Below are positions 762 through 20,358 of a DNA stretch of 45,143 bases, one piece after another. Every line of letters starts with the position of its first letter. Positions within the stretch are counted from its first letter, which is position 1. The notes under the pieces are model-generated. The model searched no databases, was not told the DNA's origin, and worked only from the letters and a program-made list of their open reading frames with translations. A program made the position numbers and the translations under genes. Origin of the DNA: an uncultured Bacteroidales bacterium. GTDB taxonomy: Bacteria; Bacteroidota; Bacteroidia; Bacteroidales; Paludibacteraceae. The stretch lies in assembly GCA_946186735.1 (NCBI GenBank), contig CAMHOK010000003.1, positions 1-45,143 on the forward strand. Reading direction: 5' to 3'.

Positions 762-1673
762 ATGATGGAGAACCAAGTGTATCATATCCCAGCCTTGCTT
801 GGTCCGACCTTAGAGGGCATGGCAATACGCCCCGACGGCACCTATGCCGACCTCACCTTCGGAGGAGGAGGACACTCTAAGGCCATCATGCAACAACTCA
901 ACCAACGCGGACGATTGTTTTCATTCGATCAAGACATAGACGCGTACGCCAATCGCTTGGACGATACGCGTTTCTGTTTTGTGCACGGCAATTTCCGATA
1001 CCTCAAGAACTTCATGCATTACTATGGCGTCAGCGCACTTGACGGCATACTCGCTGACCTCGGCGTCTCTTTTCATCATTTCGACACCGCACAAAGAGGC
1101 TTCTCTTTCCGATACTCCTCACCGCTCGACATGCGCATGAACACTTCGGCTGCAATCACCGCCGCCGACATTGTAAATACCTATACCGAGGAACAACTAA
1201 CCAATATCTTCCGACTCTATGGAGAGTGCGCCAACCCCAAACGAATAGCACACACCATCGCTCTCAAAAGGCAGACAACACCCATCACCACTACCAACCA
1301 ACTCGTTGACCTGCTCTCTACCGTCATCCTCCACGACAAAGAGAAGAAAGAGATGGCACGAGTGTTCCAGGCACTGCGCATCGAAGTGAACGACGAGATG
1401 GGAGCTCTCAAACAAATGCTCAACGCCGCGCTCGACATGCTACGACCGGGAGGACGACTCGTCATCCTTACCTACCACAGCATCGAAGACCGCATAGTCA
1501 AGAACTTCATGAGAAGCGGAAATATAGAAGGAAAAATAGAGAAAGACTTCTACGGCAACACGCTCTCACCTTTCCTTATCATCAATAACAAAGTCATCAC
1601 CGCTACACCCGAAGAGGTGGAAAGTAACCCAAGAGCACGGAGCGCCAAACTAAGAATAGCTCAGAAAAAATGA
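762..1673 (+). CDS. rsmH: 16S rRNA (cytosine1402-N4)-methyltransferase
   Basis: 303 aa; YHIPALLGPTLEGM, DLTFGGGGHSKAI, GILADLGVSFHHFD, SIEDRIVKNFM. Confidence 0.97.
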   Translation: MMENQVYHIPALLGPTLEGMAIRPDGTYADLTFGGGGHSKAIMQQLNQRGRLFSFDQDIDAYANRLDDTRFCFVHGNFRYLKNFMHYYGVSALDGILADLGVSFHHFDTAQRGFSFRYSSPLDMRMNTSAAITAADIVNTYTEEQLTNIFRLYGECANPKRIAHTIALKRQTTPITTTNQLVDLLSTVILHDKEKKEMARVFQALRIEVNDEMGALKQMLNAALDMLRPGGRLVILTYHSIEDRIVKNFMRSGNIEGKIEKDFYGNTLSPFLIINNKVITATPEEVESNPRARSAKLRIAQKK

Positions 1674-2029
1674 TCGACGAGAAAACCAACGGCAAACCCG
1701 ATGCCGACAACAAGAAGAACAAGAAGATAGATATCCGCGATTTCTTCAATGGCAATATCTTCACCAAAGAGTTCGTACAGAAACAGTACGGACTTATTCT
1801 TCTTATCAGTTTTCTCTTCCTCCTCTATATCAACAACGGTTACCAGAGCGAGAAACAACATGCACATATCGTACAACTCAAGACACAACTGCAAGACCTA
1901 AGATACGAATATCTCACCCTCGAAGCCGAGCTGGTCAACCTCAGCAAACAATCAACCATCTCCGAACAACTCCGACAATCAGGCAGCAAGGTCAAAGAGT
2001 CAACACAACCACCTGTAGAAATAAAGTAA
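1670..2029 (+). CDS. ftsL: FtsL-like cell division protein
   Basis: 119 aa, single TM plus coiled coil, position between rsmH and ftsI, 4-nt overlap with rsmH. Confidence 0.8.
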   Translation: MIDEKTNGKPDADNKKNKKIDIRDFFNGNIFTKEFVQKQYGLILLISFLFLLYINNGYQSEKQHAHIVQLKTQLQDLRYEYLTLEAELVNLSKQSTISEQLRQSGSKVKESTQPPVEIK

Positions 2030-2046
2030 CCTGAACCTACACCACT

Positions 2047-4158
2047 ATGTCAGAAACAAGAAAACGACTCATATTAAGGTTTGGAGCGGTATTCGTCTTT
2101 ATTGCTTTAGGCTTCGTGATGGTGCTCGTCAAGATTGTGTTGCTGCAGACCAAAGAGCGCGACGACTATCTCAAATACGAGCAGAAGCAGACCAAAGCCA
2201 CCCAGGTCATCGACTCCAAAAGAGGCAACATCTTCGACGCCAACCACCGTCTACTTGCCGGTAGTATCCCCACCTACACCTTCTATATGGACACCAAAGC
2301 CGAGTCGCTCAGAGGCAACAACGGCGAGCTGTTCTTCAACTATATCGACTCGCTCTCACACGCGCTCTCCCTCCTCTTCCCAGACCGCACCGAGCAACAA
2401 TACCGCCAACTCCTCGCCAACGGATATAAGAACGGAGAGCGGCGACTCCGACTCAACACTCAACGAGCCACTTATACTCAGTTCAAAGCCTTCAAGCAGC
2501 AGCCCCTCGTCAACCAAGGACGAAGCAAGAGCGGCATCTATTGGGAAGAAGGACACCGACGCATCAAACCCTTCGGCTCGCTGTGCTCCAGAACGATAGG
2601 CAGTATCTACACCGAGACAGGCAAGGGCAACTCCGGACTCGAGCTGAGCTTCGAGCAACCGCTCGCCGGCACACCCGGATGGGGTATCAAACAGCGGGTG
2701 GGCAACCGCATGGAAGTGCTGCCACTCGCCGCTCCTATCGACGGACAAGACATCGTTACCACTATCGATGCTTACCTGCAAGACATCACCGAGACCGAGC
2801 TCCGTCGCACCTTGTCTCAGACAGGAGGCAAATGGGCATGCTGCGTGCTCATGGAGACGGCCACCGGACAGATAAAAGCTATCACCAACCTCGACAGACA
2901 AGCCGACGGCACCTATGCCGAACAACTCAACCATGCCGTCACAAGGATGGAACCCGGCTCGATGTTCAAGACCATAGCACTGCTCGCCACACTCGATGAC
3001 GGCAGAGTGCAACTCGCCGACACTTTTCATGTGCCAAAGGGAGCCAAATGGGTCTATCAAGACAAAAAAACACCTATCTCCGACTCACACGAGATAGAAG
3101 AACTCAAGGGTGTCTATACCGCCAAGCAAGGACTCACAGCCTCGTCTAACATAGTACTCGCAAAGATAGTCACCAAATCGTACGAAGGCAATGCCGAACG
3201 CTTCGTTAAGAAACTGCAGAACATGGGCTTCCGCGACACTTTCCGCTGCGAGATACCCGGCTGTCAGGCCCCGAAGATAGAAGTGCCGAAGAAAGGCGAC
3301 AAAGAGACACTCTCGCGTATGTCCTTCGGCTATAACGTCGAGCTGCCACCGCTCTACACCCTTATGTACTACAACGCTATCGCCAACAACGGGAAGATGA
3401 TAGCACCATATATCGTTCAAAGGATTGAAGACCAAGACTCTCCCGTCAAAGAGTTCCGACCCAAGACCATCAACTCCTCTATCTGCTCCCGGCAGTCGCT
3501 CCAAGACATCAGAGAGTGTCTCGAGTCCGTCGTCTGGGACTCCTTAGGAACAGCCGCGGCTCGCCGATGGTCCAACAAAGCACAGAGCAAGGAAGTGCAT
3601 ATAGCCGGCAAGACAGGCACCGCACGAGTCTTCGAGAACGGCAGATATATCAACTACCGACACCGTATAGCCTTCTGCGGCTACTTCCCCATGGAGCAAC
3701 CAAGATATACATGTATCTGTATCATACACGATGTCTCACAACGAGATGCCGGAAACGACTGCGGTGGAACAGTCAGGAGAGTGGCTGAAAGAGTGATGGC
3801 ACACCACGCCGTCAAGCTCAAGAAGAACAACGACAACACACCACAAGACAACATACCTGCTATCAAAAGAGGTATGCAGAGCGCTTTCTCTGTAGTCAAC
3901 CGTGGACTCGATCTCGACCTGCCCACCTCCGACAGCCAATGGGCTCGTATCGACACCGAAGGACTCAACCACGACCTGCAGATATCCTCCTCGCTCGTGC
4001 CATCCGTCATCGGCATGGGAGCCAAAGATGCAGTCTTCGCTATTGAGCGTACAGGCATGATAGCATCGCTCAGCGGCAAAGGTAAGGTTATCTCTCAGAG
4101 CGTCAACGAAGGTAGTGTGCCACTCAGAGGAGGCACCGTCTATCTGCAACTCAGATAA
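2047..4158 (+). CDS. ftsI: Penicillin-binding protein / division transpeptidase with C-terminal PASTA domain
   Basis: 703 aa; SxxK in EPGSMFKTIA, SSN in TASSNIVLA, KTG in AGKTGTARV; PASTA-like C-terminus. Confidence 0.93.
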   Translation: MSETRKRLILRFGAVFVFIALGFVMVLVKIVLLQTKERDDYLKYEQKQTKATQVIDSKRGNIFDANHRLLAGSIPTYTFYMDTKAESLRGNNGELFFNYIDSLSHALSLLFPDRTEQQYRQLLANGYKNGERRLRLNTQRATYTQFKAFKQQPLVNQGRSKSGIYWEEGHRRIKPFGSLCSRTIGSIYTETGKGNSGLELSFEQPLAGTPGWGIKQRVGNRMEVLPLAAPIDGQDIVTTIDAYLQDITETELRRTLSQTGGKWACCVLMETATGQIKAITNLDRQADGTYAEQLNHAVTRMEPGSMFKTIALLATLDDGRVQLADTFHVPKGAKWVYQDKKTPISDSHEIEELKGVYTAKQGLTASSNIVLAKIVTKSYEGNAERFVKKLQNMGFRDTFRCEIPGCQAPKIEVPKKGDKETLSRMSFGYNVELPPLYTLMYYNAIANNGKMIAPYIVQRIEDQDSPVKEFRPKTINSSICSRQSLQDIRECLESVVWDSLGTAAARRWSNKAQSKEVHIAGKTGTARVFENGRYINYRHRIAFCGYFPMEQPRYTCICIIHDVSQRDAGNDCGGTVRRVAERVMAHHAVKLKKNNDNTPQDNIPAIKRGMQSAFSVVNRGLDLDLPTSDSQWARIDTEGLNHDLQISSSLVPSVIGMGAKDAVFAIERTGMIASLSGKGKVISQSVNEGSVPLRGGTVYLQLR

Positions 4159-4182
4159 TAGAACCAAAACAAAAAAAACAAT

Positions 4183-5649
4183 ATGAAACTCACCGAACTC
4201 ATATCTCAGTTAAACCCCATACAAGTCATCGGGTCTGCCGATATCGACATCTCTTCTATCTGCTTCGACTCGCGACTCGTCAATCAAGGCTCGCTGTTCG
4301 TTGCACAGACCGGCACCAGCGTTGACGGACACACCTTCATCCCTATGGCCATCAGCAAAGGTGCTGTGGCTGTCGTCTTAGAACAGCTGCCCGACAACAT
4401 GCCCGACAACATCTGTTTCGTTCAGGTCAGCAACTCATCCTATGCCCTCGGCATCATCGCTCATCAGTTCTACGGTGAGCCGTCCAAACAACTCACCTTA
4501 GTCGGCGTCACCGGCACCAACGGCAAGACCACTATCGCCACCCTGCTCTATGAGATGATGCAGCAGTTAGGACACAAAGCCGGACTGCTCTCTACCGTGG
4601 TCAATTATATCGACCGTCAAGCCGTGCCCTCCACCCACACCACGCCCGACTCTATCCAACTCAACGCCCTGCTCCGGCAAATGGTGGATGCCGGCTGCCA
4701 ATATGCCTTCATGGAGGTCTCTTCACACTCTATCGCGCAAGAGCGCATAGCCGGACTATGCTTCGACGGAGCACTCTTCACCAACCTCACACGCGACCAT
4801 ATCGACTACCATAAGACTTTCGACAACTACCGCGACACCAAGAAACGACTCTTCGACTCTCTGTCCGCCACGGCCTTCGCCGTCACCAACAAAGATGACC
4901 GCAACGGATTGGTCATGACACAGAACACCAAAGCACATGTCTATACCTACTCCACCAAGACCGTTGCCGACTTCAATGCACGCATACTCGAAGAGGGCTT
5001 CGACGGCATGCTCATCGAGCTCAACCGGCAACAAGTCTTCGTGCCGCTCGTCGGACGATTCAACGTCGAGAACCTGCTGTGTATCTACGGTGCCGCCACC
5101 TGCTTAGGAGTCGAACCCACAGAAGCACTGCGCGTGCTCTCTATGCTCAAGCCGGTCAACGGACGCTTCGAGACCATACACTCACCCAAAGGGTGGACCG
5201 CTATCATCGACTATGCTCACACACCCGATGCCGTACTCAATGTGATCAACACTATCAACGATATACTGCACTCACAGAACAACCAACAAGACACACCCGC
5301 CCGACTCATCACCGTCATCGGATGCGGAGGCAACAGAGACAAAGGTAAGAGACCTATGATGGCGTCTATAGCAAAGAACAACTCCGACCAACTCATCCTC
5401 ACCTCCGACAACCCACGCGACGAAGAACCACAAGACATCATCAACGATATGCTCGCCGGACTCACACCCGAACAGCAACTATCCACCCTCGTCATCGAAG
5501 ACCGACGACAAGCCATCAGAACAGCTTGCACGCTCGCCAAGAAAGGAGATGTCATACTTGTCGCCGGCAAAGGACACGAGAACTACCAGATCATCAAAGG
5601 CACCAAACACCACTTCGACGACCACGAAGAGGTGCGAGCCATGATATAA
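4183..5649 (+). CDS. murE: UDP-N-acetylmuramoyl-tripeptide synthetase
   Basis: 488 aa; GVTGTNGKTTIATLLYEM, DNPRDEEP, AGKGHENYQ. Confidence 0.97.
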   Translation: MKLTELISQLNPIQVIGSADIDISSICFDSRLVNQGSLFVAQTGTSVDGHTFIPMAISKGAVAVVLEQLPDNMPDNICFVQVSNSSYALGIIAHQFYGEPSKQLTLVGVTGTNGKTTIATLLYEMMQQLGHKAGLLSTVVNYIDRQAVPSTHTTPDSIQLNALLRQMVDAGCQYAFMEVSSHSIAQERIAGLCFDGALFTNLTRDHIDYHKTFDNYRDTKKRLFDSLSATAFAVTNKDDRNGLVMTQNTKAHVYTYSTKTVADFNARILEEGFDGMLIELNRQQVFVPLVGRFNVENLLCIYGAATCLGVEPTEALRVLSMLKPVNGRFETIHSPKGWTAIIDYAHTPDAVLNVINTINDILHSQNNQQDTPARLITVIGCGGNRDKGKRPMMASIAKNNSDQLILTSDNPRDEEPQDIINDMLAGLTPEQQLSTLVIEDRRQAIRTACTLAKKGDVILVAGKGHENYQIIKGTKHHFDDHEEVRAMI

Positions 5650-10888: not shown

Positions 10889-11629
10889 ATGAAAATCATC
10901 GAACATATAGGTGAGTACTTCATCTTAATGGGAAAAACATTGCGCCGACCTGACCGTTGGCGCATGTTCTTTCGTCAACTCTCCAAAGAGCTTGAGAAGC
11001 AAGGACTTCAGTCGGTGCTGATAGTGGTCATCGTCAGTTTCTTCATGGGAGCTATCATGACCATGCAGACCAAGCTCAACACCTCCAACCCTCTGCTCCC
11101 GACCTACTCCACAGGTCTGGTCACGCGCGACTGTATCCTCCTTGAGTTCTCATCCACCATCCTCTGTCTGCTGCTCGCAGGTAAGGTCGGCTCCAACATA
11201 GCCTCCGAGATAGGCACCATGCGCATCACCGAACAGATAGACGCCCTCGAGATCATGGGTGTCAACTCCGCCAACTACCTCATCCTGCCTAAGATAGTGG
11301 CGTTTATGCTGATGATGCCTTTCCTCGTTATCATCAGTATGGGTGTAGGACTCTTCGGAGGCTACTGCATAGGTCTGTTCACCGATGTCATCACCGTGGC
11401 AGATTATCTGCTGGGCATCCAGTATGCCTTCATTCCTTTCTATGTGTGGTACTCGCTCATCAAAACAACCGTCTTCGCCTTCATCATCTCTTCTATGGCT
11501 TCTTACTACGGCTATTACGCCTACGGGGGAGCTCTCGAGGTTGGTCATGCCAGCACCAAGGCGGTGGTCAACTCCAGCATCATGATCCTCCTCTTCAACC
11601 TTATGCTAACCAACCTGCTGCTCAACTGA
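10889..11629 (+). CDS. mlaE: MlaE-family ABC transporter permease
   Basis: 246 aa multi-TM; SEIGTMRITEQIDALEIMGVN signature. Confidence 0.92.
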   Translation: MKIIEHIGEYFILMGKTLRRPDRWRMFFRQLSKELEKQGLQSVLIVVIVSFFMGAIMTMQTKLNTSNPLLPTYSTGLVTRDCILLEFSSTILCLLLAGKVGSNIASEIGTMRITEQIDALEIMGVNSANYLILPKIVAFMLMMPFLVIISMGVGLFGGYCIGLFTDVITVADYLLGIQYAFIPFYVWYSLIKTTVFAFIISSMASYYGYYAYGGALEVGHASTKAVVNSSIMILLFNLMLTNLLLN

Positions 11630-12446: not shown

Positions 12447-12794
12447 ATGAAACACATACTCAAAACACTCTCTTTTGCTTTGCTGCTCGTGCTTGCCATG
12501 AGTGGGCAAAGCGCACAAGCTGTTCCTGCTACTCCTCATCCCATCGAGATAGTGCAACCCGACGGACAGAAACTCACCATCCGCCTACATGGCGACGAGA
12601 ACTACCACTATCGCACCACTCTCGACGGCATCAGAATAGTAAAGAACAAAAAAGGCTTCTATTGCTATGCTATCAAAGATAAACACGGCAACGATATCGC
12701 CGGAAGAAAGATAGCACACAACCAAGAACAACGAAAGAAAAGCGAGATACGCTATATCAAAAGAATAACCAAAAAGTACTACACCAAAAAATAA
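12447..12794 (+). CDS. Small secreted protein homologous to the N-terminal/propeptide region of the adjacent M6 proteases; no catalytic domain
   Basis: Signal peptide then AVPATPHPIEIVQPDGQKLTIRLHGDENYHYRT; compare AVPAKPGPRQLRQPDGQTITLFAHGDEVHHFYA in 12801..14966 and AVPAWRGPIVRTQSDGTEKTVYLHGDQFFHYLT in 15014..16675. Confidence 0.85.
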   Translation: MKHILKTLSFALLLVLAMSGQSAQAVPATPHPIEIVQPDGQKLTIRLHGDENYHYRTTLDGIRIVKNKKGFYCYAIKDKHGNDIAGRKIAHNQEQRKKSEIRYIKRITKKYYTKK

Positions 12795-12800
12795 CAACAC

Positions 12801-14966
12801 ATGAAACATACTCTTTTCCTCTGTCTGAGCCTCGTCTGCTCTATATCACTCTTTGCCGTACCTGCTAAGCCGGGTCCGCGCCAACTCCGTCAGCCCGATG
12901 GTCAGACTATCACTCTCTTCGCCCATGGCGACGAGGTGCACCACTTCTACGCCGACAACCAAGGCAACATCATGCAAAAAGATGCGCAGGGCTATTGGCA
13001 GCCAAGCGGCGAGAAAGCCACCAAGGCTCTGATCCGAGCTCAGCGCGCCAAGAAAGCACCAAGAGCACGTGCCGCCAAACGCACCAACGTGAGCACATGG
13101 CCCAACAAAGGACTCGTCATCCTCGTCAACTTCTCAGATGTCAAGTTCAAAGCCGCTAACGACAACAAAGCTTTCGACGACCTGCTCAACGGCGACAACT
13201 ACACACATAACGGAGCTACCGGCTCTGTCAAAAAATACTACTCCGACCAGTCTGACGGACAGTTCATTCCCGAGTTCCATGTCTATGGACCCGTCACCGT
13301 GTCGAAAGAGAGGTCATACTACGGCTCCAACAAAAGCAACGGCGACGACAAATATCTCGGAGCTATGGTGGCTGAGGCTTGTCAGCTGGCTTACGAGCAG
13401 TACAACATCAACCTCAAAGATTTCGATCTCGACAACGACGGCTATGTCGATTTCGTTGATATCCTCTATGCCGGTGTAGGCGAGGCCGACTCCGACGAAG
13501 AGAACTCTATCTGGCCATGCGAGTGGTCTCTGTCAGCATCCGACTATAGGAAAGAGCTGACGCTCGGAGGTACTAAGATCGACCTCTTCTCCTGCCATCA
13601 AGAGCTGGAGGGAGGAGCCGATGTGAGAGCCGGCATAGGCACACCTTGCCATGAGTTCGGACATGTGTTCGGCCTGCCCGACTTCTACGACTACGACTAT
13701 CCTACCCTCGGCGAGTGGGACGTGATGGACGGAGGTGCTTATCTGAACAACTCTAACACCCCACCCGCCTTCTCAGGATATGAGCGTATGTTCGCAGGCT
13801 GGGCCAAGCCCGCACTGCTCACCGAGAGCGGCACATACACCCTCAACGAGCTCCAAGGCTCACAACAAGTGTACATCATCTCCACCACCGGGAAGCATAA
13901 CCTCGACGCCGTAGAACCTGACCCCAAGACCTTCTATATCCTCGAGAACAGACAGAACACCAACTGGGACACCTACCTCCCCGGACACGGCATGCTCATC
14001 TGGAAAGTGCAATACAATCAGGATGATTGGTTCAACAACACCGTCAACTCACACCCCACCGCTGAACAAGGTATGGCTATCATGGCTGCCGACGGAGAGG
14101 TCGATCACGAAGTGTATCAAGGCGCTGTCTATACCTATGGCGACGCAGGAGACCCCTTCCCCGGAACAAAGAAAATAACATCTTACACCAAGATCAACAA
14201 CTATAAGATCACCGACATCGCCGAGCAGAACCAACTCATCACCTTCACCCTCACCACTAAGGGTGGCACCACCCCCACTCCCTCAGGCAACTGCGACGAC
14301 TACGAGTACACCTTCTCTGAGAAAGTGGAGGCGGGAACGGTAGAGCTTGACGGCATGCAATGGACTGTCAACACCGATGCCGGCTATTTCGGCTACGACA
14401 CCAACAACAACCCGTCTAAGGGTGCACAGTTCGGCAGCAAGAACAACCCCGCAACACAGCTCACCCTCACCACCTCTGCCACCGCCGATTGTAGCATAAA
14501 GAAAGTGACGGTCAGCGCCTCCACCGGCAGCAAGGGTAACGCCTCGCTCAGCGTCTTCGTAGGCGACACACAGATAGGTACAAGCAAAGACCTCTCTTCC
14601 GCTAACACCGCCTTTAACTTCACTCCCGCCGACGACCAACAAGGCGACCTCACCATACGCATCGACAACAAAGCTAAGGTGGCTGTCTATATCAGCGCTA
14701 TCAATATCGAGTTCGACGAGACTTCCACTGCCATCGCCAACATCGAAGAGAACACACTCCTCAGCGTCAGCACCGAAGAGAACGGACTGCACCTCACAGC
14801 GGCTGACAACCAGACACAAGTGGCTGTATATAACATCATGGGACAGCTCGTCTTCTCTGACATCATCGGTAACCAACCAATCACTATCGATGCAGCTAAG
14901 GGTATATATATCATCTCTGCTCAGCACGCCGACAAGAAACAGATAAAGAAAGTGGTGGTTAAATAA
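12801..14966 (+). CDS. M6 family metalloprotease with T9SS-type C-terminal sorting domain
   Basis: 721 aa; HEFGHVFGLPD zinc site; DLDNDGYVDFVDILYAG; C-term VYNIMGQLVFS...AAKGIYIISA...KKVVVK. Confidence 0.92.
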   Translation: MKHTLFLCLSLVCSISLFAVPAKPGPRQLRQPDGQTITLFAHGDEVHHFYADNQGNIMQKDAQGYWQPSGEKATKALIRAQRAKKAPRARAAKRTNVSTWPNKGLVILVNFSDVKFKAANDNKAFDDLLNGDNYTHNGATGSVKKYYSDQSDGQFIPEFHVYGPVTVSKERSYYGSNKSNGDDKYLGAMVAEACQLAYEQYNINLKDFDLDNDGYVDFVDILYAGVGEADSDEENSIWPCEWSLSASDYRKELTLGGTKIDLFSCHQELEGGADVRAGIGTPCHEFGHVFGLPDFYDYDYPTLGEWDVMDGGAYLNNSNTPPAFSGYERMFAGWAKPALLTESGTYTLNELQGSQQVYIISTTGKHNLDAVEPDPKTFYILENRQNTNWDTYLPGHGMLIWKVQYNQDDWFNNTVNSHPTAEQGMAIMAADGEVDHEVYQGAVYTYGDAGDPFPGTKKITSYTKINNYKITDIAEQNQLITFTLTTKGGTTPTPSGNCDDYEYTFSEKVEAGTVELDGMQWTVNTDAGYFGYDTNNNPSKGAQFGSKNNPATQLTLTTSATADCSIKKVTVSASTGSKGNASLSVFVGDTQIGTSKDLSSANTAFNFTPADDQQGDLTIRIDNKAKVAVYISAINIEFDETSTAIANIEENTLLSVSTEENGLHLTAADNQTQVAVYNIMGQLVFSDIIGNQPITIDAAKGIYIISAQHADKKQIKKVVVK

Positions 14967-15013: not shown

Positions 15014-16675
15014 ATGAAACGCATAATACACATATTTTGTCTTTTCCTCTTACCATGGGCTCTGTGTGCCGTGCCCGCCTGGCGCGGGCCTATCGTTCGC
15101 ACACAGAGCGATGGTACAGAGAAAACAGTCTATCTGCACGGCGACCAGTTCTTCCATTACCTCACCGACGAGCAGGGGCAGGTCATACGCCTCAACGAGC
15201 AAGGTATGTACGAGCAAGCCGAGCAGCTCACCGAAGAGCAGATAGCCTCTCTCAGAGCGCTCTCACCCGCCTTCCAAGCCCGTCAAAGACGCATAGGCAG
15301 ACTCAACCTCGCACCTCGCGGACTCATCATCATGGTCAACTTCAGCGACCTCAGTTTTCGCACGCAGAACACCCGTGAGGCGTTCGACAAGATGCATAAC
15401 GGCACCAACTACACCTACGGCGGAGCAACAGGCTCGGCTCGAGAGTACTTCATCGACCAGTCCTTAGGACAGTATCAGCCCCACTTCGATGTGGTAGGGC
15501 CGGTCAACCTGCCCCATAACATGACCTATTACGGAGAGAACGACCGATACGGCTCCGACCGCAGAGCCACACAGATGATTATCGATGCTTGCGACATGGT
15601 CAAAGCAGAGTACCCCGAGATCGATTTCAGTCAATACGACAACGACCGCGACGGCTTCATTGACTTCGTCTTCGTCGTCTATGCCGGACATAACGAAGCC
15701 AATGGTGCCGACCCAAACACTATCTGGCCTCATAACTACTATATCTACTCAGGCTCAGGCATCACTCATGTGTTGGACGGCGTCAAGCTCGACAACTACG
15801 CATGCTCCTCCGAGTTGCAAGGCTACTCCGGACAGAAAAGAGCAGGCATAGGCACTTTCTGCCACGAGTTCTCACATGTGCTCGGACTGCCCGACCTCTA
15901 CTCCACCAACGGTGCCGCACATAAGACCCTCGGACAGTGGGACATACTCGACTACGGACCATACAACAACAACAGCAACACACCGCCCGCTTACTCCGCA
16001 TACGAGAGGTTCTATATGGGTTGGACCGAACCCGAGGTGCTCGTGGATAGGCAGAACATACGCCTCGAACAGCTACAGTCAAGCAACAAGTGTTACCTGC
16101 TCTGTGAGACGCAAGAGCATAACCTCTATGGCGTCAAACCCTCTCCCGACGATTTCTATCTGCTGGAGAACCGCCAACAGACAGACTGGGACAGCTATCT
16201 GCCGGGACACGGACTGCTAATAACGCATATACGCTATTCTCAATCAAGATGGTCGCAGAACACTGTCAACAACAATGAGGCTACCATGGGCGTGAACATC
16301 GTGGAGGCTGACGGACTCACTCCCACAGCCGGCGAGTATCGTAAAGGCTACCTCGGCAAGCAAGGCGATGCCTTCCCCTACGACACCATCAACTACTTCA
16401 CCGCCTACCCCGACCAACCTATCACCAACATCAAAGAGAGCAACGACGGCATCATCAGCTTCTGGTATAAAGGAGGACGAAGCAACATCATCGACAGCCT
16501 GTGGAACGACCCGCAATATAAGCCGCAGGTCATCAACTACTACACCCCTGACGGCAAACCAACAGGTGCCGACGACCTCAACGACCTCCAACCCGGACTC
16601 TATATCATACAGGTGGACAAAGATCCCGTGTACAACAAAAAAGGCAGAGGAAAGAAAGTGCTCATCGTCAAATAA
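15014..16675 (+). CDS. M6 family metalloprotease, shorter T9SS-like C-terminus
   Basis: 553 aa; HEFSHVLGLPD; YDNDRDGFIDFVFVVYAG; C-term YYTPDGKPTG...LQPGLYIIQV...KKVLIVK. Confidence 0.91.
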   Translation: MKRIIHIFCLFLLPWALCAVPAWRGPIVRTQSDGTEKTVYLHGDQFFHYLTDEQGQVIRLNEQGMYEQAEQLTEEQIASLRALSPAFQARQRRIGRLNLAPRGLIIMVNFSDLSFRTQNTREAFDKMHNGTNYTYGGATGSAREYFIDQSLGQYQPHFDVVGPVNLPHNMTYYGENDRYGSDRRATQMIIDACDMVKAEYPEIDFSQYDNDRDGFIDFVFVVYAGHNEANGADPNTIWPHNYYIYSGSGITHVLDGVKLDNYACSSELQGYSGQKRAGIGTFCHEFSHVLGLPDLYSTNGAAHKTLGQWDILDYGPYNNNSNTPPAYSAYERFYMGWTEPEVLVDRQNIRLEQLQSSNKCYLLCETQEHNLYGVKPSPDDFYLLENRQQTDWDSYLPGHGLLITHIRYSQSRWSQNTVNNNEATMGVNIVEADGLTPTAGEYRKGYLGKQGDAFPYDTINYFTAYPDQPITNIKESNDGIISFWYKGGRSNIIDSLWNDPQYKPQVINYYTPDGKPTGADDLNDLQPGLYIIQVDKDPVYNKKGRGKKVLIVK

Positions 16676-16699: not shown

Positions 16700-17464
16700 A
16701 TGAAAATCATCTCCTACAACCTCAATGGTATACGCTCCGCTATCAGCAAGGGCTTGCTCACATGGCTTGAGCAAGAGTCGCCTGATGTCTTTTGCGTACA
16801 AGAGACCAAAGCGCAAGCCGACCAGATCGACACCCTCGCTTTTGCCGAACTGGGCTACCACACCTACGCCCATTCAGCCGAGAAGAAAGGTTACTCGGGC
16901 GTGGCTATCTTCTCTAAGCGCGAGCCCGACCGTGTCGTTGCAGGAATGGGTGTTCCCGTCTTCGATGCCGAAGGCAGGGTGTTGCGTGCCGACTTCGCCG
17001 ACCTCACCGTCGTCTGCGTCTATGTGCCCTCAGGAACGACAGGCGACATCCGACAAGCCTTTAAGATGCAGTTCCTCGACGCTTTCCTCAACTATCTCAA
17101 CAACCTACGACAAACAAGAGAGAACATCATCGTGTGCGGCGACTATAACATCTGCCATAAACCTATCGACATCAATCATCCTGAACGACAGGTAGGCGTG
17201 AGCGGATTCCTGCCCGAAGAGCGCGAGTGGCTCGACCAACTGGAGGCATCAGGCATGATCGACTCTTTCCGACTCTTCGACACCTCGCCCGAACGCTACT
17301 CCTGGTGGAGCTATCGCTTCCGAGCAAGAGAGAGGAACGCAGGGTGGCGCATCGACTACCACTGGGTCAGCCAACCCTTGCGCAGCCGCATAATGGGAGC
17401 CGACATACTCACCGACGCACAACACTCCGACCACTGCCCAGTCATGGTCGAGATAAAAGAATAA
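16700..17464 (+). CDS. xth: Exodeoxyribonuclease III
   Basis: 254 aa; [35 protein letters not shown]. Confidence 0.95.
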
Positions 17465-18239: not shown

Positions 18240-18961
18240 CCATGAAGCCTCTGCCCTTATATATCATCATGCCCGTCAAAGACTCGTTGGAGATGGCTAA
18301 GAAAGCTATCCGACAGATCGTCTCCACCGGTTATGCCCTCACCGTCTATAACGACAACAGCACCGACGAGAACACCCGCCTGCTCGAGCAGATGGCAGCT
18401 TCCGAGCCGCTACTCACCGTGGTTAATATACGTCAGCTCACTTCCCACCCCTCTCCTAACTACCGTCTCGTCCTGCAACAAGCACAACAGCACGCTCTCA
18501 ACAACAACCAACACCTCGTCATCGTGGAGTCGGATGTGTTCGTACAAAACAACACCTTCGAGCGGATGTACAGCGTGGTGGAGAACAACAAAGAAGGGAA
18601 ATTCGGCCTGGTGGCTGCCGTCACTACCGACCAAGAAGGAACCATCAACTACCCCTACGAGTATGCACGCAAGTACGACATCGGACAGGTCAACACATCC
18701 AAACGACTCAGCTTCTGCTGCACCCTGCTATCGCTGACGTTACTCAAGACCTACTCCTTCAGCAACTTAGACGAGACCAAGAACTGGTACGATGTGTTCA
18801 TCTCGCACATGTCAGTACAGAAAGGACTGAGCAATATCCTGCTCACCGACACACCCGTGGTACACCTGCCACACTCCTCCCGACCTTGGAAGAAACTCAA
18901 ATATACTAACCCTCTGCTCTATTATTGGCGTAAGCTCACCAAGCACTTAGACAGGATATGA
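18236..18961 (+). CDS. Family 2-like glycosyltransferase
   Basis: 241 aa; [28 protein letters not shown]; 4-nt overlaps with lptB and the next gene. Confidence 0.8.
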
Positions 18962-20358
18962 GAACGGTCTCGGTCATAGTTCCGTGTTATAACATGAGTG
19001 CCACTGTCATCGACACTCTCCGTTCTGTGTGTGCCTCCACCTATAAAGACATCGAGGTTGTGGTTGCCGACGACGGTTCGACCGACAACAGCGCCGAGCT
19101 CGTCCTCCAGGCAGCCTCCGTTGACCCCCGCATACATCTCGTTCACTCTAATGCAGGCAATGTGGCTAAGGCTCGCAACTATGCCATCCGGCACTCCTCA
19201 GGCTTTTATATCTTGCCCGTCGATGCCGACGACCGCATATCACCTACCTTCATCCAACATGCCGTAGAGGCTATCGAGAAAGACGAGAACATCAAAGCGG
19301 TAGGCGCAAGAGCCGAGTTCTTCGGAGACAAGACAGGCGAGTGGATCACACCCGATTTCTCACTCCCTCTGTTGGCACGAAAGAACATGATTCCTATCAG
19401 TGCCTTATACCGACGCCTCGATTACGACAAGACAGACGGGTATAACGAACATCTGCCTATACGCGAGGACTGGGACTTCTGGCTGTCTATCTTCGCCAAT
19501 GGAGGAGAGTTTGTGAAGTTGCCTGAGGTCGGACTGTATTATCGGATCCACCAACAGTCCAAGCGCGTTACCGACCGCGACCGCAAGCGAGAGCTCATCA
19601 GTGAGCTCAACCGCCGACATGCACCATTCTTCCGCAAGTACTTAGGCGGACCGCTGCACTACCATCGTTCTTGGTCAAGGCTGCTCAACCTCTTCCGTCG
19701 TGAGACCACGGTGGGCACTTTCGACCACTGGGACGAAGGAGACATCATCTTCGAGCGACGCAACACCCTGCGCCGATACAAAGGTCTGGCCATCAAACAG
19801 TTCGCCACACCCTCTTTCTTCCGCTCATTCATCTACGGCTTCTTCCGCTCGTCTAAAGCTAAGCGCTCTTACGAGCATGCACTATTGCTCGGACAGATGA
19901 CACCTCAGCCTATCGCCTACAAAGAGGTGAGAGTCTTAGGTATGCTCCGAGAGAGCTATTATGTGTCAGAAGAGTCTGCCACCACTCACACCTTCAACGA
20001 CCTTATCGACAACCCCTCTTTCCCCAACCGCTCTCTTATACTGCAACACATAGGTCGCTTCACCGCTCTCATGCACCAAAAAGGACTCTACCACCAAGAC
20101 TACTCCGGCGGCAACATACTCTTCGCTTGCACACCTCCTCTGGTCCATATCGAGGTGGTGGACCTCAACCGTATGCTCACCGCACAGCATATAAACATGC
20201 AACGAGGGTGCCGACAGTTCGAACGACTGCCCGTCGAGCCCGAGGCACTCGACATCATGGCAAGAGCCTATGCCGAGACGATGGCGTTCGACCCCGACCA
20301 ATGCTGCACTCTCGTCAGACAAATGCGATGGTGGAAACATAAACGCAAAAAACAATAG
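18958..20358 (+). CDS. Fusion: GT2 glycosyltransferase plus C-terminal LPS (Kdo/WaaP-type) kinase domain
   Basis: 466 aa; N-term SVIVPCYNMSATV...ADDGSTDNSA; C-term GLAIKQF, YHQDYSGGNIL, VVDLNRM. Confidence 0.85.
   Translation: MRTVSVIVPCYNMSATVIDTLRSVCASTYKDIEVVVADDGSTDNSAELVLQAASVDPRIHLVHSNAGNVAKARNYAIRHSSGFYILPVDADDRISPTFIQHAVEAIEKDENIKAVGARAEFFGDKTGEWITPDFSLPLLARKNMIPISALYRRLDYDKTDGYNEHLPIREDWDFWLSIFANGGEFVKLPEVGLYYRIHQQSKRVTDRDRKRELISELNRRHAPFFRKYLGGPLHYHRSWSRLLNLFRRETTVGTFDHWDEGDIIFERRNTLRRYKGLAIKQFATPSFFRSFIYGFFRSSKAKRSYEHALLLGQMTPQPIAYKEVRVLGMLRESYYVSEESATTHTFNDLIDNPSFPNRSLILQHIGRFTALMHQKGLYHQDYSGGNILFACTPPLVHIEVVDLNRMLTAQHINMQRGCRQFERLPVEPEALDIMARAYAETMAFDPDQCCTLVRQMRWWKHKRKKQ

What the first reader, a model, noticed from the sequence alone, without database searches (positions are those of the whole stretch)
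12447..12794. Orphan propeptide-like secreted protein encoded directly before two M6 metalloproteases
The 115-aa product has a signal peptide and the same AVPA..P.....QPDG.......HGD...H......G pattern as the N-terminal regions of both downstream M6 proteases, then ends in a basic tail without a catalytic domain. It sits 6 nt upstream of, and in the same frame as, the first protease. By analogy with propeptide-derived protease inhibitors (for example I29-type versus papain-like enzymes), it could be a trans-acting inhibitor/chaperone of the proteases. It could also be a degenerate remnant of a third protease.
Basis: partly seen in the sequence, partly recalled or inferred. Interest (0 to 1): 0.65.

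Follow-up and report, generated by a model that had tools for sequence, protein, structure and literature searches.

The report
Stand-alone M6 protease prodomain gene
A small exported protein encoded just before two secreted zinc proteases is a complete protease "safety-catch" domain made as a separate gene; it is kept under strong selection across a whole bacterial genus and most likely holds the neighbouring proteases inactive, or helps them fold, from outside, although no binding or inhibition has been shown.

Summary
The 115-aa ORF (12447-12794, "SOLO") is a real, exported, stand-alone copy of the complete N-terminal prodomain that Bacteroidales M6 metalloproteases carry. It is not a decayed fragment. 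In the window's genus 65 of 81 genomes have it as a separate gene, 6 have it fused in frame to an M6 catalytic domain, and 10 lack it. In 57 of 59 stand-alone loci read it lies next to and upstream of an M6 gene (median gap 18 nt). dN/dS is 0.05-0.14. SOLO groups with canonical prodomains of other families, not with the short, divergent N-domains of its neighbours. The strongest evidence is one well-supported clade of M6 catalytic domains that all lack their own N-domain: five have the prodomain fused, five have SOLO next door. One probable further member has neither. Two genomes keep SOLO in its slot without an adjacent protease. Other stand-alone prodomains occur in two further families. Best explanation: a prodomain acting in trans (inhibitor and/or foldase) on M6 proteases, analogous to SUB1-ProM, crammer or Spi. 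Binding, inhibition and chaperoning remain untested, and SOLO is dispensable in some genomes. No Pfam, NCBIfam or PDB counterpart of the domain was found.

The parts
12447..12794 (+). SOLO: stand-alone M6 prodomain protein, 115 aa
   Evidence: conserved in 65/81 genomes of the genus
12447..12521 (+). Signal peptide of SOLO (residues 1-~25), by eye; cleavage site not predicted by a tool
   Evidence: Sequence; helix 2-17 in model; many homologues end in ..AQ, as in the Bacteroidetes Q-rule (PMC5837995)
12522..12782 (+). Mature prodomain: six beta strands and a C-terminal helix (about residues 33-112)
   Evidence: AlphaFold2 on 32-row alignment, domain pLDDT about 90-97; family model match 1-112, 144 bits
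12801..14966 (+). First M6 metalloprotease, 721 aa, with T9SS type A sorting tail; immediate partner of SOLO
   Evidence: TIGR03296 183.7 bits; TIGR04183 28.4 bits
12810..13052 (+). Divergent N-domain of the first protease (model positions 10-91 only)
15014..16675 (+). Second M6 metalloprotease, 553 aa
   Evidence: TIGR03296 193.3 bits
15014..15241 (+). Divergent N-domain of the second protease (model positions 1-83)
10889..11629 (+). mlaE-like ABC permease: upstream edge of the conserved slot
   Evidence: PF02405
11631..12407 (+). mlaF-like ABC ATPase directly upstream of SOLO
   Evidence: ABC ATPase, MlaF model among the best families but none over cut-off; position next to mlaE
16700..17464 (+). 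xth, exodeoxyribonuclease III: downstream edge of the slot
   Evidence: TIGR00633
17478..18239 (+). lptB, LPS export ATPase, downstream synteny marker
   Evidence: TIGR04406

Best explanation
SOLO is the prodomain of M6 metalloproteases made as a separate protein. It is exported by its own signal peptide (in one subclade as a lipoprotein), folds on its own, and binds the catalytic domain of the M6 protease(s) encoded next door. There it takes the place of the N-terminal prodomain that those proteases have lost or keep only in a shortened form. By doing so it keeps the protease latent in the periplasm, and may help it fold, until the protease is secreted or the prodomain is removed. Shown by computation: the gene is real and conserved; it is a complete M6 prodomain; it is under purifying selection; it is linked to M6 genes; it is interchangeable with a fused prodomain in one protease clade. 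Inferred: export route, binding, inhibition or folding help, location.
For: (1) In other families the same full-length domain is the N-terminus of M6 proteases: all 31 long-ORF matches examined at locus level carry the M6 domain. (2) Stand-alone in 65/81 genus genomes, fused in 6, absent in 10. (3) 57 of 59 stand-alone loci have an M6 gene directly downstream, median gap 18 nt, 51 within -60..+100 nt. (4) A clade of 10 M6 catalytic domains (SH-aLRT 100) in which none has its own N-domain: five carry the prodomain fused, five have SOLO adjacent. (5) An independent fusion in G032. (6) SOLO and fused domains score 107-194 bits over nearly the whole model; separate N-domains of genus proteases reach at most about 62 bits and mostly stop before the C-terminal helix. 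(7) dN/dS 0.05-0.14, SOLO usually more conserved than its partner. (8) SOLO kept in the slot without an adjacent M6 in G025 and G352, which have M6 genes elsewhere. (9) Stand-alone prodomains also in family f78 (g80 5/5, g183 4/4, g189 1/3) and f79 (2/2, lipoprotein). (10) Confident fold on its own. (11) SOLO is basic (median net charge +9) against a catalytic part of -21, whereas canonical prodomains elsewhere are -2.
Against: No binding or activity data. The pseudo-complex model returned no inter-domain error, so docking is not established. Six genomes keep slot M6 genes without SOLO, one of them (G369, 76% complete) with an M6 that lacks any N-domain, so SOLO is not universally needed. Most partner proteases still have some N-domain of their own. 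The mirror-tree signal between SOLO and the catalytic domain (partial r 0.30) is not clearly above a housekeeping control (mlaF 0.25). One subclade of SOLO lacks the C-terminal helix.
Confidence: 0.64

Rival explanations
1. The domain is not mainly an inhibitor or foldase of the neighbouring protease but a binding or targeting module (for substrate, cell surface or the secretion machinery) that happens also to sit at the N-terminus of M6 proteases; the stand-alone gene serves that role alone.
For: Retained without an adjacent protease (G025, G352), far from M6 genes in f78/f79, as a lipoprotein in some lineages; no fold match to a known inhibitor.
Against: All long proteins with the full domain that were examined at locus level are M6 proteases; fused or split alternation within a protease clade whose members lack any other prodomain; operon-like linkage.
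Confidence: 0.2
2. SOLO acts on other M6 proteases of the cell (the long T9SS cargo proteases elsewhere in the genome) as a general periplasmic M6 inhibitor, the neighbour being only one client.
For: All but one of the 81 genus genomes have M6 genes, usually several; SOLO without adjacent M6 in two genomes; f78/f79 copies are unlinked to M6 genes but their genomes encode long proteins with the domain.
Against: Strong linkage to slot M6 genes in 57/59 loci; fusions only to slot M6 genes were seen.
Confidence: 0.12
3. Decayed remnant of a third M6 protease.
For: It is a prodomain without a catalytic domain next to two tandem M6 genes.
Against: 65/81 genomes, dN/dS 0.05-0.14, intact reading frames, independent stand-alone copies elsewhere.
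Confidence: 0.01
4. Assembly or frame error: SOLO and the M6 gene are really one gene (frameshift, stop read-through).
For: Short gaps, same frame in the window and some loci.
Against: The M6 protein has its own start and signal-like N-terminus; the three frame offsets are about equally common; the same arrangement is found in dozens of independent assemblies.
Confidence: 0.01

Closest known systems
SUB1-ProM of Plasmodium (PMC6993865)
   Same: Stand-alone propeptide-like protein from a conserved syntenic gene next to its protease genes; shown there to be a fast, potent inhibitor of SUB1.
   Different: Subtilisin (serine) protease and its prodomain in a eukaryote; here an M6 zinc protease and an unrelated prodomain in bacteria; inhibition not tested here.
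Crammer and I29-type cathepsin propeptide-like inhibitors (PMC3551606, PMC6010012)
   Same: Free copies of a protease prodomain acting on the enzyme in trans.
   Different: Cysteine proteases, no sequence relation found; not known to me to lie in an operon with the protease.
Spi of Streptococcus pyogenes and staphostatin-like Bfi/Bti of Bacteroides C10 proteases (PMC3462683)
   Same: Small proteins encoded next to a secreted bacterial protease and co-transcribed with it; in Bacteroides some are lipoproteins and one is predicted periplasmic.
   Different: Cysteine proteases; the Bacteroides proteins are staphostatin-like, not prodomain copies; no sequence relation was seen.
N-terminal prodomain of Bacteroidales M6 metalloproteases
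   Same: Homologous over the full length; SOLO groups with these in the tree.
   Different: Here on its own polypeptide with its own signal peptide; strongly basic.
Immune inhibitor A2 zymogen (PDB 4yu5, 4yu6)
   Same: Only solved structures matching the M6 partner by sequence and fold.
   Different: The SOLO model alone did not match these or any PDB entry.

Membership tests
M6 metalloprotease prodomain (Bacteroidales type) | Sequence homology over the full domain, including the C-terminal R...E..(W/Y)L helix | tested here: met
   Profile matches 1-112, 144 bits in window; tree with 24 canonical prodomains
M6 metalloprotease prodomain (Bacteroidales type) | Found fused N-terminal to an M6 catalytic domain | tested here: met
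   31 order-level M6 ORFs and 6 genus fusions
M6 metalloprotease (peptidase) | Catalytic domain with HExxH zinc site | tested here: not met
   SOLO has none; 74 of 77 slot M6 proteins checked have it
Trans-acting propeptide-like protease inhibitor (works-like class) | Stand-alone gene homologous to a protease prodomain, conserved and under selection | tested here: met
Trans-acting propeptide-like protease inhibitor (works-like class) | Binds and inhibits the protease | not testable with these tools
   Needs proteins; pseudo-complex model gives no inter-domain confidence
Foldase / trans-acting chaperone prodomain | Partner needs it to fold | tested here: inconclusive
   Prodomain-less M6 clade has SOLO or a fused prodomain in 10 of 10 tree members, but a probable further member, G369, has neither
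Staphostatin/Spi/I29 inhibitors | Sequence or fold relation | tested here: not met
   No Pfam/NCBIfam match and no PDB sequence or fold match

The most novel reading that the evidence does not exclude
A two-gene ('split') zymogen: in one clade of M6 proteases the latency/folding prodomain is supplied by a separate gene in place of the covalent one, so folding and activation are controlled by a diffusible or lipid-anchored prodomain, with repeated fission and fusion in the genus and parallel stand-alone prodomains in other families acting on unlinked M6 cargo.
Probability: 0.35. Interest if true: 0.68.

Novelty: new variant of a known kind. Interest (0 to 1): 0.55.

Why it matters
Free prodomains that regulate proteases in trans are known for some cysteine and serine proteases; I found no description for M6 metalloproteases or for type IX secretion cargo. 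The genus offers natural fused and split versions of the same protease, so it can be asked directly whether a zymogen's prodomain may be supplied from another gene, and whether it serves as inhibitor, foldase or both. It also defines an unannotated domain (no Pfam, NCBIfam or PDB match) at the front of many Bacteroidales M6 proteases.

Tried and rejected
Decayed remnant: rejected by dN/dS and distribution. Single gene with read-through or frameshift: rejected, since M6 proteins have their own start and signal and frame offsets are mixed. Weak Pfam hits of SOLO to SNAD4/APOBEC3/Benyvirus P25 (E 0.01-0.4, far under cut-off): chance. Mirror-tree coevolution of SOLO with the M6 catalytic domain: partial r 0.26-0.30, but mlaF, a control, gives 0.25, so inconclusive. 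Fold search of the SOLO model in PDB and BFVD: nothing below E 0.04. Read-through pseudo-complex (L065 SOLO plus prodomain-less M6): both parts confident, pTM 0.79, but no coordinates or PAE are returned, so docking could not be read. 'Basic tail' as a separate feature: it is the C-terminal helix of the domain. Contig ends and start choice make some slot M6 starts uncertain; G007's 480-aa M6 looked N-domain-less only because of a wrong start and is not counted as such. One M6 in G028 has an odd N-terminus, possibly a frame error. Literature searches found no M6 precedent; the library misses most subscription journals.

Full report
WHAT IS THERE. The ORF at 12447-12794 (+) encodes 115 aa with a hydrophobic N-terminus and the core pattern VPA..P....QPDG..L...LHGDE..H...T.DG......KKG.YCYA....G......AHN..R...E..YI. 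It begins 39 nt after mlaF and ends 6 nt before the first of two M6 metalloprotease genes (12801-14966, 15014-16675; TIGR03296 184 and 193 bits), which are followed by xth and lptB. It has no Pfam or NCBIfam match; representative homologues have none above chance either. In its own genome the only other similar stretches are the N-termini of the two M6 proteins (E 5e-9 and 7e-7). I call it SOLO.

IT IS A CONSERVED GENE. A first search of 36 same-genus genomes found short open frames of similar size, mostly just before an M6 gene. With an alignment of 32 of them (A2), 81 genomes of the genus were searched. By my count of the table, 65 have a complete-domain match in a short open frame (101-236 aa stop to stop), 6 have it at the front of an M6 open frame of 595-624 aa, and 10 have neither. 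Loci of 59 stand-alone and 6 fused cases were read in detail. The slot is mlaE-mlaF-SOLO-(1 to 3 M6)-xth-lptB where both edges were seen. 57 of 59 SOLO genes have an M6 gene next on the same strand; the median gap is 18 nt, 5 are the -4 overlap, and 51 lie within -60..+100 nt. Pairwise dN/dS (Nei-Gojobori) for the closest pairs, where not saturated, is 0.05-0.14, like that of the partner proteases, and SOLO is usually the more conserved of the two (97 vs 81%, 90 vs 69%, 83 vs 72%). This excludes a decayed fragment.

WHAT DOMAIN IT IS. In 294 genomes of the order the same profile mostly hits the first ~110 residues of long open frames. All 31 such ORFs examined at locus level (24 distinct) carry the M6 catalytic domain. 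So the domain is the ordinary prodomain of Bacteroidales M6 proteases. A tree of 148 domain sequences puts the N-domains of the genus' slot M6 proteins in one clade (100/100), and SOLO, the fused genus domains and the canonical prodomains of other families on the other side. Few columns are available and many inner forks are unresolved, but that split is strong. SOLO and fused domains score 107-194 bits over nearly the whole model; the neighbours' N-domains reach at most about 62 bits and often end at positions 64-99 of 114. One SOLO subclade (G014, G024, G334, G349, G353, G356, G357, G367; also G344) itself ends before the helix.

FUSED OR SPLIT. In a tree of the M6 catalytic domains, ten genus proteins form a clade (SH-aLRT 100, quick search) and none has its own N-domain. 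Five carry the complete prodomain in frame (G005, G017, G346, G366, G351). In the other five genomes (G001, G007, G028, G344, G360) it is the separate SOLO gene next door. G032 is a further, separate fusion. Fusion and separation of two parts within one orthologous group is classical evidence that they work together. The exception is G369 (76% complete): by similarity its 504-aa M6 belongs with this clade, but it has neither a fused prodomain nor SOLO. Five more genomes (G004, G022, G033, G341, G363) keep an M6 with its own N-domain in the slot and no SOLO, so SOLO can be dispensed with. Conversely G025 and G352 keep SOLO in the slot without an adjacent M6 and have M6 genes elsewhere.

RECURRENCE. 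Stand-alone prodomains are also found in family f78 (genus g80 5/5, g183 4/4, g189 1/3; two different conserved neighbourhoods in g80 and g183, not beside M6) and in f79 (2/2, as a lipoprotein, not beside M6). A lipobox also occurs in SOLO of G012 (second copy) and G016, and a likely one in their relatives G335 and G345. The tree suggests more than one origin but does not force it.

STRUCTURE. AlphaFold2 of the window's SOLO with the 32-row alignment gives a confident domain (block pLDDT 90-97; six strands and a C-terminal helix) with no similar PDB entry (best E 1.0) and none in BFVD. The M6 partner matches only immune inhibitor A2 zymogen structures. A read-through chain of G001's SOLO and its N-domain-less M6 folded with confident domains and pTM 0.79, but neither coordinates nor inter-domain errors are returned, so docking is unproven. 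SOLO is basic (net +9 median, +12 in the window) and the catalytic part acidic (-21); canonical prodomains of other families are about -2. This fits electrostatic attraction but proves nothing.

MECHANISM. The most likely reading is a prodomain supplied in trans: exported separately, it binds the M6 catalytic domain in the periplasm and holds it latent, perhaps also helping it fold, before type IX secretion or local activation. Inhibitor and foldase cannot be told apart here; many prodomains are both (general knowledge). The closest functional precedents are SUB1-ProM (PMC6993865), crammer (PMC3551606), and Spi and the Bacteroides C10-linked inhibitors (PMC3462683). None is related in sequence as far as tested. 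A mirror-tree test was inconclusive because a housekeeping control gave nearly the same value.

VERDICT. The trans-acting inhibitor/chaperone idea is well supported by genomics but functionally untested. It is a new variant of a known kind (free prodomain regulators), for a protease family where I found no precedent in the library searched.

Noticed in passing
window 18958-20358: A 466-aa ORF joins a family 2 glycosyltransferase (residues 5-160) to a Kdo/WaaP lipopolysaccharide-kinase-like domain (residues 312-406), two genes after lptB; the fusion looks unusual to me.
   Followed up: no
window 15014-16675: The second M6 has no significant T9SS tail match but ends ..GLYIIQVDKDPVYNKKGRGKKVLIVK, which resembles one by eye.
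   Followed up: no
L109, L110, L111, L189 (family f78, genus g80): Stand-alone secreted M6-type prodomain gene conserved in 5 of 5 genomes, before a 624-aa ORF that looks like a topoisomerase IV/gyrase B subunit by eye, with no M6 gene adjacent.
   Followed up: partly
L184-L187 (family f78, genus g183): Another stand-alone prodomain gene in a different conserved neighbourhood (uppP- and truB-like genes by eye, and a conserved 368-aa ORF), 4 of 4 genomes.
   Followed up: partly
L107:5289-5699 and L108:5018-5425 (family f79): Stand-alone prodomain as a lipoprotein, beside what look like heterodisulfide-reductase-like genes, far from any M6 gene.
   Followed up: partly
L161 (G360), 1491-5037: SOLO lies between two M6 genes, neither with a recognisable N-domain; the upstream 527-aa M6 lacks the canonical HExxHxxGxPD pattern, as do one M6 each in G365 and G368, so inactive copies may exist.
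   Followed up: no
L177:1436-2950 (G369): A 504-aa M6 related to the prodomain-less clade with neither fused prodomain nor SOLO in the slot; the one exception to the fused-or-split rule.
   Followed up: partly
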